Source: Muribaculaceae bacterium
Lineage (GTDB): Bacteria; Bacteroidota; Bacteroidia; Bacteroidales; Muribaculaceae
Length of the DNA stretch: 64,000 nucleotides
Direction of reading: 5' to 3'
Assembly (NCBI GenBank): GCA_016290325.1
Contig: JAEETL010000011.1
Location: 1-64,000 of the forward strand
Both the position numbers and the translations under genes were made by a program. Shown here in pieces: positions 2,155 to 54,950 of this stretch. The notes below the pieces were generated by a model, which was given only the letters and a program-made list of their open reading frames with translations, had not been told where the DNA came from and searched no databases. Every line of letters begins with the position of its first letter. The first letter of the stretch is position 1.

Positions 2155-2332
2155 GGGCTGTGTCATAATTAATCTGCTGGAATTATAACCGCCCTTCGGG
2201 CGGGAAATCAAAACAAATTTTGTATTAAAATTAAAATAATTATAATTTTATATCAATTTAGTAAATAATTTGTATTAATTTCCCGTGCGTAGCACGGTTA
2301 AAAATAGCGACATTGAATTATGACACACCCTC
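2155..2332. mobile_element. Candidate MITE (non-autonomous inverted-repeat element)
   Basis: The ends are inverted repeats sharing TGTGTCATAATT, preceded by GGGC on the left and AGGG on the right. Just inside each end is a small GC hairpin (CCGCCC/GGGCGG at 2189-2203; CCGTGC/GCACGG at 2282-2296), each adjoining GGGAAAT or its complement on the inner side. The interior is ~75 bp of almost pure A+T with no reading frame. The outer motif resembles the terminal repeats of several Bacteroidetes insertion sequences, which is from memory. No target-site duplication was identified with certainty. Confidence 0.55.
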
Positions 2333-19360: not shown

Positions 19361-19439
19361 AAAACAACAATAAATACAATAATGACAATGTCATTTAGCA
19401 ACACTTAGCAAATTGTATTTGTTGTACTTATTGTTTTCC
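19361..19439. repeat. Inverted repeat of 9-nt ACAATAAAT-type units without a gene
   Basis: The right arm (19412-19439) is, reversed, identical at 27 of 28 positions to the repeat at 34715-34742 next to the GxxExxY gene. The left arm (19361-19380) is an imperfect partner. Between them is a small palindrome (AATGAC-AAT-GTCATT, 19381-19395) and no reading frame. Confidence 0.65.
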
Positions 19440-19493: not shown

Positions 19494-19532
19494 TGACGGT
19501 CGCTGGTGGATACACCAGCGACCGTCACTTTT
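19494..19532. terminator. Perfect 15-bp terminator hairpin between convergent genes
   Basis: TGACGGTCGCTGGTG pairs with CACCAGCGACCGTCA around GATA and is followed by CTTTTC. It separates kbl from the TonB-receptor gene. Confidence 0.85.
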
Positions 19533-33205: not shown

Positions 33206-34669
33206 TTACTCGAAGATGGGGGTGCCGATGCAGGCGTTGGGTGCCTGGATGTGGAGCATGGCGCACACGGTGGCGGCGATGTCGGTCATGTGGGTGAGGC
33301 GTGAGGTCTCACCAGGGGTGATGTGCCATCCCATAAAGATGAGCGGGATATGGGAGTCGCTCTGGCTCCAGGTGCCGTGGTTGGAGCCGGCCCATTCGGT
33401 TTTTCCGGCATAGACTCCTGTGCGGGGTACAATGTATATCTCGCCGCTGCGACCGGGGAAATAGCCCAGCTTGATGCGTTCCTTGAGGATTGTAGGGATA
33501 GGATAAGAATCGAGGTGGGCAACGTCGAGGGCCCACTGGATTTCCTCGGGCACCTCCAGCGCAGCACATGCGGCACTCATCACTTGGTCATAGTCAAGTC
33601 TATTGGCTTTGATGACCTCGTGGTTGAGGTAGAAAGTGTACTCCATCTCGGCTTTGAGCAGGCTGTCGACGCCAAACTGTTGTTTGAGCAGTTTATTGGC
33701 CTCGATGAGAGCGTCGGGGTTGTGCCAGCAGCCGCTGGGCAATCCGTGGTCGGTCATTGTGGGATAGCTCCATGTGCCGCCGTGGTCGGCGCTAAGGAAC
33801 AGTAGGTAGTTGTCGCGCCCGATGCGTTGGTCGAGTACCTCGATGAAATGGGCCAGTTCCTTGTCCAGCTGCCAGTAAATGGAGTCCACCTTGGGCGAGT
33901 GCACACCATAAGAGTGGGCACACATATCGGTGTTGGAAACGCTGATGGTGAGCATGTCGGTTACCTCACCCTGGCCCAAATTCTCGTTCATGAGCGCCTG
34001 CTCGGCGAGGGCAAAAGTTAATGTGGTGCCAGTGGGCAGGTTATAGATGTCGCTGGCTAACTCGTTGCGATGGCCCTTGTTGAAATCGGCAACCCATTTG
34101 GGGAGTTTATTCATATAATAGGTGCTGGTGACGAATGACTTGCTGCTACCGTCATACCAATAGGCGCCGACGGGATGATGGCCCGCTGGAAGGACGGCAG
34201 CGCGGTCCTTGAGGGCAACACCCACGGTACGGCTCTTGAAGTTGGTGGCCAGTTGCAGTTGGTCGGCAATGGTGGTGGTGATGAGGTTGCGCGGTGATTT
34301 GCCGCGGGTCTTCTCATTACCGCCCACACCGCGCTCAGTATCGTCTTGGACGCTTGTCACGTTCTTGCCGTTAAGCATGAAATTGTTGCCGGCGATGCCA
34401 TGAAAGGCGGGTGTGGTGCCCGTGTAGATGCAGGAGTGTCCTATAGCGGTCACGGTGGGCACATAATCGATGATGGTGTTGTTGCAGGAGTAGCCATCGT
34501 TGAGTAGCGTTTTGAAACCGCCCTCGCCCCAAGTGTAGGTGTGAAGATAGTCCCACCTCATTTGGTCGACAACAATACCCACAACCAATTTGGGCCTCTC
34601 CACTTGGCTGCTGGCGCATAGCGCCACAACAGCCATCATAACAACCAATAATCTCTCCATTCTCTCCAT
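33206..34669 (-). CDS. PafA-like alkaline phosphatase, secreted
   Basis: A metal-dependent phosphomonoesterase of the alkaline phosphatase superfamily, 487 residues with a signal peptide (to ~S20). Metal and active-site parts are visible: VVDQMRWDYL, the Thr-type nucleophile region DYVPTVTAIGHS, the KDR motif (GVALKDRAAVL) that marks PafA-type monoesterases, SNTDMCAH, LSADHGG and AGSNHGTWS. It would release phosphate from organic compounds in the periplasm. Two ATGs (34669 and 34660) are possible. Confidence 0.88.
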   Translation of the reverse strand: MERMERLLVVMMAVVALCASSQVERPKLVVGIVVDQMRWDYLHTYTWGEGGFKTLLNDGYSCNNTIIDYVPTVTAIGHSCIYTGTTPAFHGIAGNNFMLNGKNVTSVQDDTERGVGGNEKTRGKSPRNLITTTIADQLQLATNFKSRTVGVALKDRAAVLPAGHHPVGAYWYDGSSKSFVTSTYYMNKLPKWVADFNKGHRNELASDIYNLPTGTTLTFALAEQALMNENLGQGEVTDMLTISVSNTDMCAHSYGVHSPKVDSIYWQLDKELAHFIEVLDQRIGRDNYLLFLSADHGGTWSYPTMTDHGLPSGCWHNPDALIEANKLLKQQFGVDSLLKAEMEYTFYLNHEVIKANRLDYDQVMSAACAALEVPEEIQWALDVAHLDSYPIPTILKERIKLGYFPGRSGEIYIVPRTGVYAGKTEWAGSNHGTWSQSDSHIPLIFMGWHITPGETSRLTHMTDIAATVCAMLHIQAPNACIGTPIFE

Positions 34670-34714
34670 ATCCTAAATTGTTAAAATACAATGCTTTATC
34701 TAATTATTATAAAA

Positions 34715-34742
34715 GGAAAACAATAAGTACAATAAATACAAT
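34715..34742. repeat. Left inverted repeat of the GxxExxY bracket
   Basis: 28 nt built from ACAATAAAT-type 9-nt units, ending two nt before the stop codon of the GxxExxY gene. It is repeated at 19412-19439 (reversed, 27 of 28) and, inverted, at 35191-35217. Confidence 0.8.
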
Positions 34743-34743
34743 A

Positions 34744-35181
34744 TTAATTTCTGTATTTATGGACAATTCGTCCATCAACAGTGAGGATATCGCGTTTCTC
34801 CTCATCATAAAAATATCTCTCCACTAAAGCTTTTTTTCCAGAGAAATTCACAATAATTCCGCTAGGACATTTAAGGAGCCTCATATAGTTAAATAGTTGA
34901 GCTCTCATATCTCCATTCAAATCATCAACAGATTTGCACTCGATGATAATGCTTTCTTTACATAAAAAGTCAATGCGGTAAATGGCATCCATCATCTTTC
35001 CGTGGTAAGAAGGGTGAATGGTTAATTCCTTTTTGAATGGAATTGATTGCTCTTCTAGTTGAAGCTTTAGTCCTTCTTGATAGCAAAACTCATTTAGCCC
35101 AGGCCCTAATTCACTGTGCACTTCATATATGGCACCCACGACATCAAAGACGTGCTCCTTTAACTTTTCTAGGTCAATCAT
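34744..35181 (-). CDS. GxxExxY family protein (PD-(D/E)XK nuclease-like)
   Basis: 145 residues from the ATG at 35181 (an upstream TTG is less likely). The family motif is GLNEFCY (G28-E31-Y34). A nuclease-type D...ExK constellation is visible: IDFLCKESIIIECKSV with D71, E81 and K83. Proteins of this family are widespread with no settled function, and the fold suggests DNA or RNA cleavage. The gene sits exactly between inverted repeats, one ending 2 nt past the stop and the other 9 nt before the start. Its A/T-rich codons differ from neighbours, which supports recent transfer. Confidence 0.85.
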   Translation of the reverse strand: MIDLEKLKEHVFDVVGAIYEVHSELGPGLNEFCYQEGLKLQLEEQSIPFKKELTIHPSYHGKMMDAIYRIDFLCKESIIIECKSVDDLNGDMRAQLFNYMRLLKCPSGIIVNFSGKKALVERYFYDEEKRDILTVDGRIVHKYRN

Positions 35182-35190
35182 TATCAATGA

Positions 35191-35217
35191 TTTGTATTTA
35201 TTGTATTTATTGTTTTC
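35191..35217. repeat. Right inverted repeat of the GxxExxY bracket
   Basis: Reverse complement of the left repeat with about two or three mismatches, 9 nt upstream of the GxxExxY start codon. Confidence 0.8.
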
Positions 35218-35265
35218 TTATTAGTTTATGATTTGATGATTGTAATAGTTGTATAATCGAGGGGG

Positions 35266-36297
35266 TTAGAGGTGGCGGGTGGTGCCGCGGACGACGAGGC
35301 GGGTCTTGACGATGCGTTTTTCGGCGTGGTCATGCGGTAGGGTACCCTCTACAAGTCCGATGAGGACATCGGCCGCCTCTTTTCCGACCTGGGTGCCGCG
35401 TTGCTCTACTGTCGTGAGCATAGGATCGCAAACGGTGGCGCGGAAGCCGTTAGTGAAGCCACAGATGCTCACCTCATCAGGGACGACATAGCCCAACCGT
35501 TTCACCACCGCAAGGATGCCGATTGCGGTCTCGTCGTTGACGGCAAAGAAAGCATCAGGACGGTCATCCATTTGCATCATCGCGGGCGTAATGCGTTCGG
35601 CATCAGCGCGGTTGTCACATATGCGCACGAGCGACTCGTCGAGTGTGAGGCCGTGCTTATACAACGCGTCACGGTAGCCGTTGAAGCGGTTCTTGCCGAT
35701 TTGGAGGTTCATGGATGTGCCATAGAAGGCGATGCGCTTGCAGCCAGTGGTGATGAGGTGGGAGACCGCATTGAACGTTCCCATATAGTCATCGACGACG
35801 ACGCGGCTGGCGTTGAGTGCGGGGCAGATGCGGTCATAGAAGACCAGTGGCACGCCCGACGCCGTGAGGTGCTCAAAGTGGTCATAGCGCTCGGTGTCCT
35901 TGGCCTGGGAGACAATGATGCCGCAGACCTTGTTCTTGAGCATCGACTCACAGATTTGTACCTCACGCTCATAGCTCTCGTTGCTTTTTGCCACGATGAT
36001 ATGGTAGCCACGCGCCGAGGCCTCGGCCTCGATGCCATCAAGAATTGACGAGAAATAGTAGTGTACCAGTTCGGGTACAATCACGCCAATGGCGCGTGAC
36101 GGGTTGCGACGGCTGTGCCTTAACTGCTCGGCAATGACGTTAGGGAAGTAATTGTGCTCACGGGCATATTGCTGGATAGCCTGCCTGCGTTCTTTGGAAA
36201 TACTCGGACTATCGCTTAAAGCTCTTGACACAGTGGCAACCGATACGCCCAATTCCCGGGCGATATCCTTCATCGTCATGTGTTGGTTATGATTCAT
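35266..36297 (-). CDS. LacI family transcriptional regulator of the starch locus
   Basis: 343 residues: N-terminal HTH (~8-32, TMKDIARELGVSVATVSRAL), hinge helix (FPNVIAEQLR) and a periplasmic-binding-type sensor domain (~65-343, IGVIVPELVHYYFS, VSICGFTNGF). It is divergent from susC with a 266-nt spacer holding a LacI-type palindrome. Bacteroides sus uses SusR, a different family; here a LacI type takes the place. By context it likely senses a maltodextrin. The same palindrome occurs upstream of the transporter-malQ-pullulanase operon. Confidence 0.92.
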   Translation of the reverse strand: MNHNQHMTMKDIARELGVSVATVSRALSDSPSISKERRQAIQQYAREHNYFPNVIAEQLRHSRRNPSRAIGVIVPELVHYYFSSILDGIEAEASARGYHIIVAKSNESYEREVQICESMLKNKVCGIIVSQAKDTERYDHFEHLTASGVPLVFYDRICPALNASRVVVDDYMGTFNAVSHLITTGCKRIAFYGTSMNLQIGKNRFNGYRDALYKHGLTLDESLVRICDNRADAERITPAMMQMDDRPDAFFAVNDETAIGILAVVKRLGYVVPDEVSICGFTNGFRATVCDPMLTTVEQRGTQVGKEAADVLIGLVEGTLPHDHAEKRIVKTRLVVRGTTRHL

Positions 36298-54507: not shown

Positions 54508-54508
54508 T

Positions 54509-54536
54509 GATTAGTGATTAGAGGTTATAGATTAGT
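54509..54536 (-). repeat. 7-nt periodic tract containing the four-helix-bundle stop; left arm of an inverted repeat
   Basis: Plus-strand units GATTAGT, GATTAGA, GGTTATA and GATTAGT. Its first 15 bases (54509-54523) are the exact reverse complement of 54918-54932 on the other side of the gene. Confidence 0.8.
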
Positions 54537-54900
54537 GGGGTAGTTGATTGGTTTTGCTTGAACGCAAACCGCTAATCAATTTTGATGTGTTGTAAATGAG
54601 GGGCTTTATTTCCCTGAAATCCTCATCTGAAATATAACCGAGATCAAGAGCTAGTTGCAGATTGCAATAAACCTCCATTACAGATCCATAAGCTATTTCA
54701 ATGAAATGGATTTGTTCCTTAATGGCTATCCTACCATTGCCTTCAGCAATATTAGATGGTACTGAAATCGCAGCACGGCGCAACTGGTCACAAAGCGCAA
54801 ATCGCTCCTCATTTGGGAACTTCTTTAAAAGCTGATAGATAGCAATTACCATCTTTCTGGATTCTTGCCATGCATTTAATTTCTCAAATTGATATTCCAT
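54532..54900 (-). CDS. Four-helix-bundle (23S rRNA intervening-sequence type) protein
   Basis: 122 residues from the ATG at 54900. The sequence matches the four-helix-bundle family: FEKLNAWQESRKMVIAIYQL, the signature QLRRAAISVPSNIAEG and a helical C-terminal half ending SKLISGLRSS. Relatives lie in intervening sequences of 23S rRNA genes and as accessory proteins of diversity-generating retroelements; others stand free between genes. Here it is free-standing between ddl and the pullulanase gene, held between perfect 15-bp inverted repeats. No reverse transcriptase is nearby. Its A/T-rich codons differ from the neighbours. Confidence 0.9.
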   Translation of the reverse strand: MEYQFEKLNAWQESRKMVIAIYQLLKKFPNEERFALCDQLRRAAISVPSNIAEGNGRIAIKEQIHFIEIAYGSVMEVYCNLQLALDLGYISDEDFREIKPLIYNTSKLISGLRSSKTNQLPH

Positions 54901-54917
54901 CTGAAGAAGTAATATTT

Positions 54918-54938
54918 CTCTAATCACTAATCACTAAT
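54918..54938 (-). repeat. 7-nt periodic tract after the pullulanase stop; right arm of the inverted repeat
   Basis: On the minus strand TGATTAG-type units occur 12 nt after the TAA stop at 54951-54953. Confidence 0.8.
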
Positions 54939-54950
54939 CACACGCATGTG

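What the first reader, a model, noticed from the sequence alone, without database searches (positions are those of the whole stretch)
34715..35218. GxxExxY nuclease-like gene held exactly between inverted repeats, with a gene-less similar bracket at 19361-19439
Seen: a 28-nt repeat made of 9-nt ACAATAAAT-type units ends 2 nt after the gene's stop codon, and its inverted copy begins 9 nt before the start codon. The right arm of an inverted repeat downstream of kbl matches the left one at 27 of 28 positions, yet has no gene between its arms. Known: GxxExxY proteins are widespread and unexplained; here D71, E81 and K83 fit a PD-(D/E)XK nuclease. Inference: a minimal mobile or homing cassette, or an RNA whose ends pair and whose ORF is cargo. 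The transcript would form a ~26-bp stem closing over the ORF.
Basis: partly seen in the sequence, partly recalled or inferred. Interest (0 to 1): 0.72.

Follow-up and report, generated by a model that had tools for sequence, protein, structure and literature searches.

The report
Swappable nuclease cassette between 9-letter repeats
A small nuclease gene sits between mirrored arms built of nine-letter DNA units, and in related bacteria the gene and its arms have been swapped together at the same chromosomal spot, so the whole block looks like an undescribed mobile element found in several bacterial phyla.

Summary
The window's GxxExxY (PF13366) gene lies between 32-nt inverted arms of 9-nt units; a gene-less hairpin of the same unit lies at 19366-19435. 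It is general: 107 of 143 GxxExxY loci tested (99 of 134 distinct), from several phyla, have inverted arms (shifted-position controls 0 of 274, shuffles 4 of 286), mostly of 9-10 nt period with many unit sequences. The unrelated S23 family, known from 23S rRNA intervening sequences, has inverted arms of 7-nt period (18 of 33 loci); one is in this window. Period follows protein family.

Key result: at two fixed sites in one genus, unit type follows the GxxExxY protein (nearest protein neighbour has the same unit in 24 of 24 and 26 of 26 genomes), not the flanking genes (5 of 24, 10 of 26). Gene plus arms are replaced as a block, with no donor flank seen; some relatives hold only a hairpin or nothing. 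Arm mismatches show no sense-strand G-U bias; the gene is under strong purifying selection.

Best reading: a mobile, homing-like cassette whose nuclease recognises its own arms. Exchange as a unit rests on sequence comparison; catalysis by the nuclease is inferred. My searches found no description in print.

The parts
34744..35187 (-). GxxExxY (TIGR04256 / PF13366 PDDEXK_3) ORF; TTG start 35187 or ATG start 35181; stop 34744-34746
   Evidence: TIGR04256 113.7 bits, PF13366 106.3 bits; D71, E81, K83 invariant in 54 aligned proteins
34710..34741 (+). 3' arm (downstream of the gene), 9-nt units ACAATAAGT ACAATAAAT ACAA preceded by AAAAGGAAA
35192..35223 (-). 5' arm (upstream of the gene), 9-nt units ACAATAAAT ACAATAAAT ACAA read on the - strand
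   Evidence: DNA fold z -4.1
35266..36297 (-). flanking gene, LacI-like by reading its translation (not HMM-tested); conserved neighbour of site 1 on the 5' side of the cassette
33206..34669 (-). flanking gene, alkaline-phosphatase-like by reading its translation (not HMM-tested); conserved neighbour of site 1 on the 3' side of the cassette
54532..54927 (-). S23/IVP four-helix-bundle gene (TIGR02436), a 7-nt-period counterpart element
   Evidence: TIGR02436 112.9 bits; PHROG Avd match E 3.6e-7
54508..54531 (+). arm of the S23 element, 7-nt units TGATTAG
54917..54940 (-). inverted arm of the S23 element, 7-nt units TGATTAG (score 16.5, lag-7 match 0.85)

Best explanation
The gene and its two arms are one mobile element: a small PD-(D/E)XK-type nuclease gene bounded by inverted arrays of about 9-nt units. 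SHOWN by sequence comparison: arms and gene travel together, are replaced as a block at fixed intergenic sites with no donor coding flank detected, and unit sequence is matched to protein type; gene-less hairpins occupy some of the same sites in relatives and other intergenic places. INFERRED: the GxxExxY protein recognises its own unit array in a hairpin or cruciform formed by the arms, cuts there, and so drives excision, or homing into sites that hold a hairpin. Gene-less hairpins would then be remnants or non-autonomous copies, much as REPINs relate to RAYTs. The S23 family would be a parallel class using a 7-nt period.
For: Arms (score 13 or more) at 107 of 143 GxxExxY loci, controls 0 of 274 shifted positions and 4 of 286 shuffles; 99 of 134 after removing near-duplicates. 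Neighbour-gene controls 2 of 54, one of the two being another GxxExxY gene. Best lag 9 or 10 at 87 of those 107 loci; lag 9 autocorrelation 0.464 against 0.282 shuffled; S23 lag 7 0.585 against 0.292. Units point inward at 80 of 107 loci, outward at 10, unclear at 17. Site 1: unit-protein r 0.84, unit-flank -0.06, partial Mantel p 0.0005; same unit in nearest protein neighbour 24 of 24, in nearest flank neighbour 5 of 24. Site 2: r 0.95 and 0.06; 26 of 26 and 10 of 26. Close pairs carry different cassettes, e.g. flanks 3.8% apart but gene DNA 35.9% apart, with coding flanks about as similar near the cassette as far away. Two pairs show the reverse (gene 1.6% and flank 9.7%; 1.1% and 5.6%), the first with a near-identical tract roughly from arm to arm. 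Hairpin-only and naked alleles at both sites. dN/dS about 0.05 (28 unsaturated of 351 pairs).
Against: No binding or cutting was tested and no structure could be predicted (queue busy). Unit and protein would also co-segregate if the block were swapped by other machinery. Dispersed arm type follows resident site type only weakly (p 0.007 by counts, 0.015 by fractions), and ACAATA arms are common in genomes whose site-1 cassette is another type; G006 has 58 arm matches (up to 2 mismatches) although its site 1 holds no gene. 36 of 143 loci (35 of 134 distinct) have no arms scoring 13. Of the gene-less alleles read, only 3 of 14 at site 1 and 4 of 15 at site 2 hold a hairpin scoring 13. No target-site duplication could be read; the filled/empty pairs are too diverged. 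One GxxExxY query found 8 of 72,556 plasmid and 0 of 50,697 phage records (diverged members could be missed), so the route between species is unknown. The same sites stay occupied across a genus, so free hopping must be rare.
Confidence: 0.6

Rival explanations
1. Allele swapping by ordinary homologous recombination after DNA uptake, kept diverse by balancing or frequency-dependent selection; the arms regulate the gene (terminator or translation control) and coevolve with it.
For: Several divergent cassette types (A, B, C; D, E, F) recur across species at one site, as for trans-species polymorphisms; strong purifying selection on the protein.
Against: In the 4 close pairs examined, coding flanks within 90 nt of the cassette are as similar as distant flanks on 6 of 8 sides and only 1.8 and 2.8 points lower on the other two, so no donor flank tract is seen. 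Regulation does not explain gene-less hairpins dispersed over the genome or a period that follows protein family.
Confidence: 0.2
2. An RNA element of the 23S rRNA intervening-sequence kind: the arms pair in the transcript and are cut by RNase III, and the ORF is cargo.
For: S23, the ORF of the known IVS elements, has the same architecture with 7-nt units, and the Coxiella IVS paper reports tandem heptamers GACAGAT beside S23p and a 28-bp terminal stem, with RNase III excision (PMC4990558, abstract and passages seen). The window transcript folds with a closing stem, z -3.1.
Against: No sense-strand G-U bias in arm mismatches (97 against 93). The cassette is intergenic and the window has no Rfam match at gathering thresholds. 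The ORF is under strong selection.
Confidence: 0.1
3. A self-limiting nuclease module (addiction or defence): the arms are the operator or antidote and the cassette spreads by killing or excluding rivals.
For: Cassette types replace one another at the same site, as competing selfish modules would. Weak similarity to Cas4-type nucleases (PADLOC E 0.0027; Pfam E 0.058).
Against: No second gene inside the window cassette; few plasmid and no phage records found with one query; PADLOC matches are weak (15.9 bits at best).
Confidence: 0.07
4. The repeats are chance or ordinary terminators unrelated to the gene.
For: Single hairpins between genes can act as terminators (general knowledge, no call).
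Against: Controls 0 of 274 and 4 of 286 against 107 of 143; co-segregation of arm type with protein.
Confidence: 0.02

Closest known systems
23S rRNA intervening sequences (IVS) with the S23p ORF (e.g. Coxiella, Leptospira)
   Same: One small ORF held between inverted repeats that form a long stem; short-period tandem units in the arm (heptamers in Coxiella, PMC4990558, passages); persistence with some decay.
   Different: Protein unrelated (nuclease-like instead of four-helix bundle), period 9-10 instead of 7 nt, intergenic instead of inside 23S rRNA, and no sign of RNA-level selection.
REPIN-RAYT systems (recalled; papers seen only in the search listing)
   Same: A persistent gene flanked by inverted copies of a repeat that is also dispersed as gene-less hairpins.
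   Different: PD-(D/E)XK-type protein (PF13366) instead of an HUH tyrosine transposase; unit is a 9-nt tandem array; several differently matched gene/unit types in one genome.
Homing endonuclease cassettes, e.g. the PD-(D/E)XK enzyme I-Ssp6803I (recalled)
   Same: Nuclease ORF with empty and filled alleles at fixed sites and horizontal replacement.
   Different: Intergenic, bounded by inverted repeats, not in an intron or intein; no co-conversion of flanks seen.
T7 endonuclease I (Holliday-junction resolving PD-(D/E)XK enzyme; function recalled)
   Same: Weak profile similarity over the catalytic stretch that aligns D and ExK (3cae E 0.24, 1m0d E 0.37).
   Different: Not significant; fold and junction preference untested.
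7-nt TAACTGA direct repeats of Beggiatoaceae (PMC4679880, passages seen)
   Same: Intergenic 7-nt tandem units shared between distant phyla.
   Different: Nearly all direct, not inverted; the terms S23 and nuclease do not occur in that paper's main text.

Membership tests
GxxExxY / PDDEXK_3 (TIGR04256, PF13366) | HMM score above the curated cut-off | tested here: met
   113.7 bits against 35; 106.3 against 22
GxxExxY / PDDEXK_3 (TIGR04256, PF13366) | GxxExxY motif and D...ExK catalytic residues | tested here: met
   G28, E31, Y34, D71, E81, K83 invariant in 54 aligned proteins
PD-(D/E)XK nuclease | fold and metal-dependent DNA cleavage | not testable with these tools
   17 structure requests met a full queue (first, last); no bench assay; sequence similarity to solved nucleases weak
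REPIN-RAYT | gene encodes an HUH/Y1 transposase | tested here: not met
   best Pfam match is PF13366 and no Y1_Tnp match is listed at E up to 10
REPIN-RAYT | gene flanked by inverted copies of a dispersed palindromic repeat | tested here: met
REPIN-RAYT | dispersed repeat population depends on or matches the resident gene | tested here: inconclusive
   matched excess p 0.007 by counts, 0.015 by fractions, n = 25 genomes, phylogeny not controlled; ACAATA arms also common in genomes with other site types
REPIN-RAYT | GTAG/CGTC foot next to the hairpin (recalled) | not tested
   -
23S rRNA IVS element | inserted in 23S rRNA | tested here: not met
   lies between two protein-coding ORFs; no Rfam match in the window at gathering thresholds
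23S rRNA IVS element | S23p ORF | tested here: not met
   ORF is GxxExxY; the S23 gene at 54532-54927 is a separate element
23S rRNA IVS element | terminal inverted repeats forming a stem around the ORF | tested here: met
Homing endonuclease cassette | empty and filled alleles at the same site, horizontal replacement | tested here: met
Homing endonuclease cassette | co-conversion of flanking DNA from the donor | tested here: not met
   near flanks about as similar as far flanks in 4 close pairs (the first 15 nt on the phosphatase side were left out)
Homing endonuclease cassette | enzyme cuts the empty allele | not testable with these tools
   needs a cleavage assay
DDE-type insertion sequence or MITE | target-site duplication | tested here: inconclusive
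   no filled/empty pair close enough to read a junction

The most novel reading that the evidence does not exclude
Bacteria of several phyla carry a previously unrecognised class of mobile cassettes in which a single small protein drives the spread of periodic inverted repeats, and the repeat period is a signature of the protein: 9-10 nt for the GxxExxY nuclease, 7 nt for S23, of which the 23S rRNA intervening sequences would be only the best-known members. The protein reads its own tandem units in a DNA hairpin, and unit and protein change together, giving many mutually distinct specificities within one genome.
Probability: 0.4. Interest if true: 0.92.

Novelty: new variant of a known kind. 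Interest (0 to 1): 0.82.

Why it matters
GxxExxY proteins occur in half of the sampled genomes of this phylum (99 of 198 over the curated cut-off) and in other phyla, with no function that I found in print; S23 proteins are likewise said to have no known function (PMC4990558, passage). Tying each family to its own repeat period, and showing that gene plus repeats are exchanged as a block, turns two unexplained families into testable mobile systems and may explain part of the intergenic palindromes of these genomes. If unit and protein truly coevolve, the family is a natural collection of matched nuclease and target-unit pairs.

Tried and rejected
RNA-stem reading: tested by G-U asymmetry, 97 against 93; not favoured. 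Chance or terminator: rejected. One ORF with one universal repeat: rejected, because the five own-genome copies have five units. Host-specific artefact: rejected, because 16 of 25 non-Bacteroidota loci have arms (phylum assigned by me from record titles, with L170, L141 and L143 of unclear phylum left out and L184 untestable). Tight REPIN-like dependence of dispersed hairpins on the resident gene: only weakly supported. Same-type cassettes at two sites as proof of hopping between sites: the single type-F copy at site 1 (L122) is not clearly sister to the type-F copies at site 2, so not claimed; at clade level the site-1 type C groups with site-2 types D and E (support 0.97). Protein positions that separate unit types were listed but follow the tree, so nothing is built on them.

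Rows dropped. L043 (duplicate of L001) was left out before counting; one of 144 loci was untestable; nine near-duplicates were removed (143 to 134). Controls and the polarity count were made on the set before de-duplication. mis-picked the ORF at some truncated loci, so only searches are used for counts. One search used 24 of 27 filled sites: L093 (mixed arms) and L122 (singleton type) were excluded, and one type-A site lacked a left flank. Site 2: of 30 loci fetched, L291 (truncated gene, no arms), L296 and L297 (no gene) and one lacking a flank were not used, leaving 26. L089 and L096-L098 had no gene in the stretch fetched. One search compared 26 filled with 9 empty genomes; G059 (mixed arms) was left out and the sites' own arms were included in that comparison. 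The S23 set (33 loci) was not de-duplicated; L261/L262 and L247/L249 look like near-copies. The fourth S23 match in the own genome (L039, 30.8 bits, partial) was not counted. Loci are the best-scoring hits per search and many match lists were capped, so the loci are not a random sample. Literature searches; PMC open-licence papers only.

Full report
Observation. The GxxExxY gene at 34744-35187 (-) is real (TIGR04256 113.7 bits; PF13366 106.3 bits) and lies between arms 34710-34741 and 35192-35223, 32 nt and 91% complementary, built of ACAATAAAT-type 9-nt units. Of 46 ORFs of at least 100 aa in the window, two have flanking inverted repeats scoring 13 or more: this one (24.5) and the S23-type gene at 54532-54927 (16.5); the third best is 10.5.

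Own genome. Five PF13366 genes are present. All five lie between inverted repeats of about 9-nt units, but each has another unit: GAATT-type, CTGATT-type, CGAATTA-type, GACAAC-type and ACAATA-type. The GACAAC copy (L004) is the weakest, with a score of 12.5. The ACAATA arm pattern (up to 3 mismatches) matches 36 times in the genome, the reversed control 0 times. Eighteen of the 36 hits form 9 close inverted pairs, i.e. gene-less hairpins of about 55-70 nt; others are single arms, some in chains with other units.

Generality. I collected GxxExxY loci from the genus, from named genomes of several phyla, one viral contig and the phylum. Of 143 testable loci, 107 have flanking inverted repeats scoring 13 or more, against 4 of 286 dinucleotide shuffles and 0 of 274 shifted positions. 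After removing near-duplicates it is 99 of 134: genus 30 of 32, named genomes 48 of 73, phylum 20 of 28, viral 1 of 1; of 25 loci that I assign to other phyla than Bacteroidota, 16. Among 54 neighbouring-gene controls two reach 13, and one of these is itself another GxxExxY gene. So 35 of 134 distinct loci lack clear arms; decayed copies or a different biology are both possible. Arms repeat with period 9 (autocorrelation 0.464 against 0.282 shuffled; lag 18 0.382 against 0.267; lag 10 0.349; lag 7 0.250); the best lag is 9 at 64 and 10 at 23 of the 107 loci. Units of other phyla are of the kinds CACGAATTx and CGCAGATTx, and CACAGAGxx-type units appear within the phylum set. Units point inward at 80 loci, outward at 10, unclear at 17; the unit motif was chosen after seeing the arms but applied to both directions.

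A second family with a second period. Three full S23/IVP four-helix-bundle genes (TIGR02436) occur in the own genome, and all three have inverted arms, but of 7-nt units. In 33 S23 loci (3 own plus 30), 18 have arms scoring 13 or more (shuffles 2 of 132, shifted positions 2 of 66), with lag 7 at 0.585 against 0.292, lag 14 at 0.634, lag 21 at 0.662 and lag 9 at 0.275. The period therefore follows the protein family. Independently, the Coxiella IVS paper describes tandem heptamers GACAGAT next to S23p and a 28-bp terminal stem (PMC4990558, abstract and passages seen).

Cassette swapping at site 1. Of 101 genomes of the genus, 99 match the 3-kb stretch around the window gene in one or both flanks. 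At filled sites both arms agree within a genome, but the unit differs between genomes: ACAATA (A), ACAAGA (B), ACAACT (C), GACAAG (F); one genome (L093) has mixed arms. For 24 typed sites, unit type correlates with GxxExxY protein distance (r 0.84; partial Mantel given flanks 0.84, p 0.0005) and not with the flanking genes (r -0.06); protein and flank distances are themselves uncorrelated (r 0.02). The nearest protein neighbour has the same unit in 24 of 24 genomes, the nearest flank neighbour in 5 of 24. Pairs with very similar flanks carry different cassettes, e.g. L076/L084: flank 3.8%, gene DNA 35.9%. In four such pairs coding flanks within 90 nt of the cassette are as similar as distant ones on 6 of 8 sides and 1.8 and 2.8 points lower on the other two, so no donor flank is seen. 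The spacers between arms and neighbouring genes also differ between such pairs, so the exact ends of the swapped block cannot be read there.

Site 2. The own-genome locus L004 gives a second site with types D, E and F. For 26 typed sites: unit-protein r 0.95, unit-flank 0.06, partial 0.95 with p 0.0005; nearest protein neighbour same unit 26 of 26, nearest flank neighbour 10 of 26. Two pairs show recent transfer: gene 1.6% and flank 9.7%, gene 1.1% and flank 5.6%; in the first the near-identical tract roughly spans arm to arm, with a few internal differences and with edges blurred by conserved neighbouring gene ends.

Empty alleles. Fourteen gene-less relatives were read at site 1: hairpins scoring 13 or more in G006 (GACAAC unit), G087 (AACAAC unit) and the distant G069 (CGTGAATT unit, 10-nt period); a weaker one in G053 (11.5, ACAAGAAGT unit); by eye single arms in G041 and G002 and, in G052, arms with a remnant of the gene start; no hairpin scoring 13 and none seen by eye in G083, G023, G072, G005, G029 and G012, while G016 has a short 9-bp one. 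Fifteen gene-less alleles at site 2: ACAATA hairpins in G081, G089, G032 and a second contig of the window's own assembly (16.5-19.0), in G081 and G089 beside a single arm of another type; partial forms in G055, G052, G041 and G018; nothing in G003, G079, G014, G027, G029 and G012; G063 has 10-nt direct repeats.

Tests of mechanism. Mismatches between arms are as often wobble on the sense strand as on the antisense strand (97 and 93, p 0.83; 335 transversions), so there is no sign of selection for an RNA stem, although the RNA would fold that way (z -3.1). The ORF at site 1 is under strong purifying selection (dN/dS about 0.05; only 28 of 351 pairs unsaturated). Catalytic residues are invariant in 54 aligned proteins. 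Similarity to T7 endonuclease I is weak (E 0.24) but aligns the D and ExK residues; Cas4-type similarities are weak too. Structure prediction could not be run. Dispersed arms match the resident type at site 1 more than expected (p 0.007 by counts, 0.015 by fractions, 25 genomes), but the effect is modest and phylogeny is not controlled; 26 genomes with a filled site 1 have more arms than 9 with an empty one (medians 11.5 and 4, p 0.004, same caveat), yet G006, empty at site 1, has 58 arm matches. One GxxExxY protein as query found 8 of 72,556 plasmid records, at least one of which carries radA and may be chromosomal, and 0 of 50,697 phage records; diverged members could be missed.

Interpretation. 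Shown by comparison: a cassette of gene plus arms, exchanged as a unit at fixed intergenic sites, with matched unit and protein, present in several phyla, with gene-less hairpin forms. Inferred: the protein recognises the unit array in a hairpin or cruciform of its own arms and cuts there, which drives loss, gain and replacement. The architecture is closest to the S23 intervening sequences and, in population behaviour, to REPIN-RAYT, but the protein, the period and the genomic context differ, so I file it as a new variant of a known kind and give the bolder reading separately.

Print. GxxExxY is named in two held papers (search listing only). PF13366 occurs in one held paper, TIGR04256 and PDDEXK_3 in none. 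One of six typical arm strings occurs, in two papers whose titles and abstracts are on animal biology (listing only). No paper on these cassettes was found; subscription journals and preprints are mostly not held, and the free text of the NCBIfam record was not available.

Noticed in passing
window 54508-54940: S23/IVP four-helix-bundle gene between inverted arms of 7-nt units (TGATTAG), the 7-nt counterpart of the finding.
   Followed up: yes
window 2156-2330: Long imperfect inverted repeat (74-nt arms, score 21.5) with an inner GC-rich hairpin ACCGCCCTTCGGGCGG; a similar stretch occurs in relative G058 (L119). Another dispersed intergenic element, not 9-nt periodic.
   Followed up: no
L013, L014, L018, L019, L020, L023, L024, L025: Single ACAATA arms in own-genome intergenic regions, several in chains with other unit types (GGACAACxx, GCGAATTxx) and next to GGCATCCGCG-like separators that also occur inside arms of some filled cassettes (L047, L061, L063).
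   Followed up: no
   Followed up: no
G000 contigs C63 (L306) and C68 (L004/L269): The window's own assembly holds two diverged copies (73-84% identical) of the site-2 region, one with the gene and one with a gene-less hairpin: perhaps a mixed bin (3.5% contamination) or a paralogous region.
   Followed up: partly
L137 1486-1860 and 2510-2899; G130:C1:1593381-1594196; G192:C4:68683-69764: Two GxxExxY genes close together in tandem; both L137 copies have their own arms. The other two pairs were seen only in the match list.
   Followed up: partly
window 54532-54927: The S23 protein matches the PHROG family for the DGR accessory protein Avd (E 3.6e-7), linking the 7-nt elements to diversity-generating retroelement accessory proteins.
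   Followed up: no
window 19494-19527: Perfect 15-bp hairpin with a 4-nt loop (TGACGGTCGCTGGTG...), probably a terminator between genes.
   Followed up: no
L124 (distant relative G069, site 1): A distant relative carries at site 1 a gene-less hairpin of a quite different unit (CGTGAATT, 10-nt period, score 23.5), so this intergenic place may have received such elements more than once.
   Followed up: no
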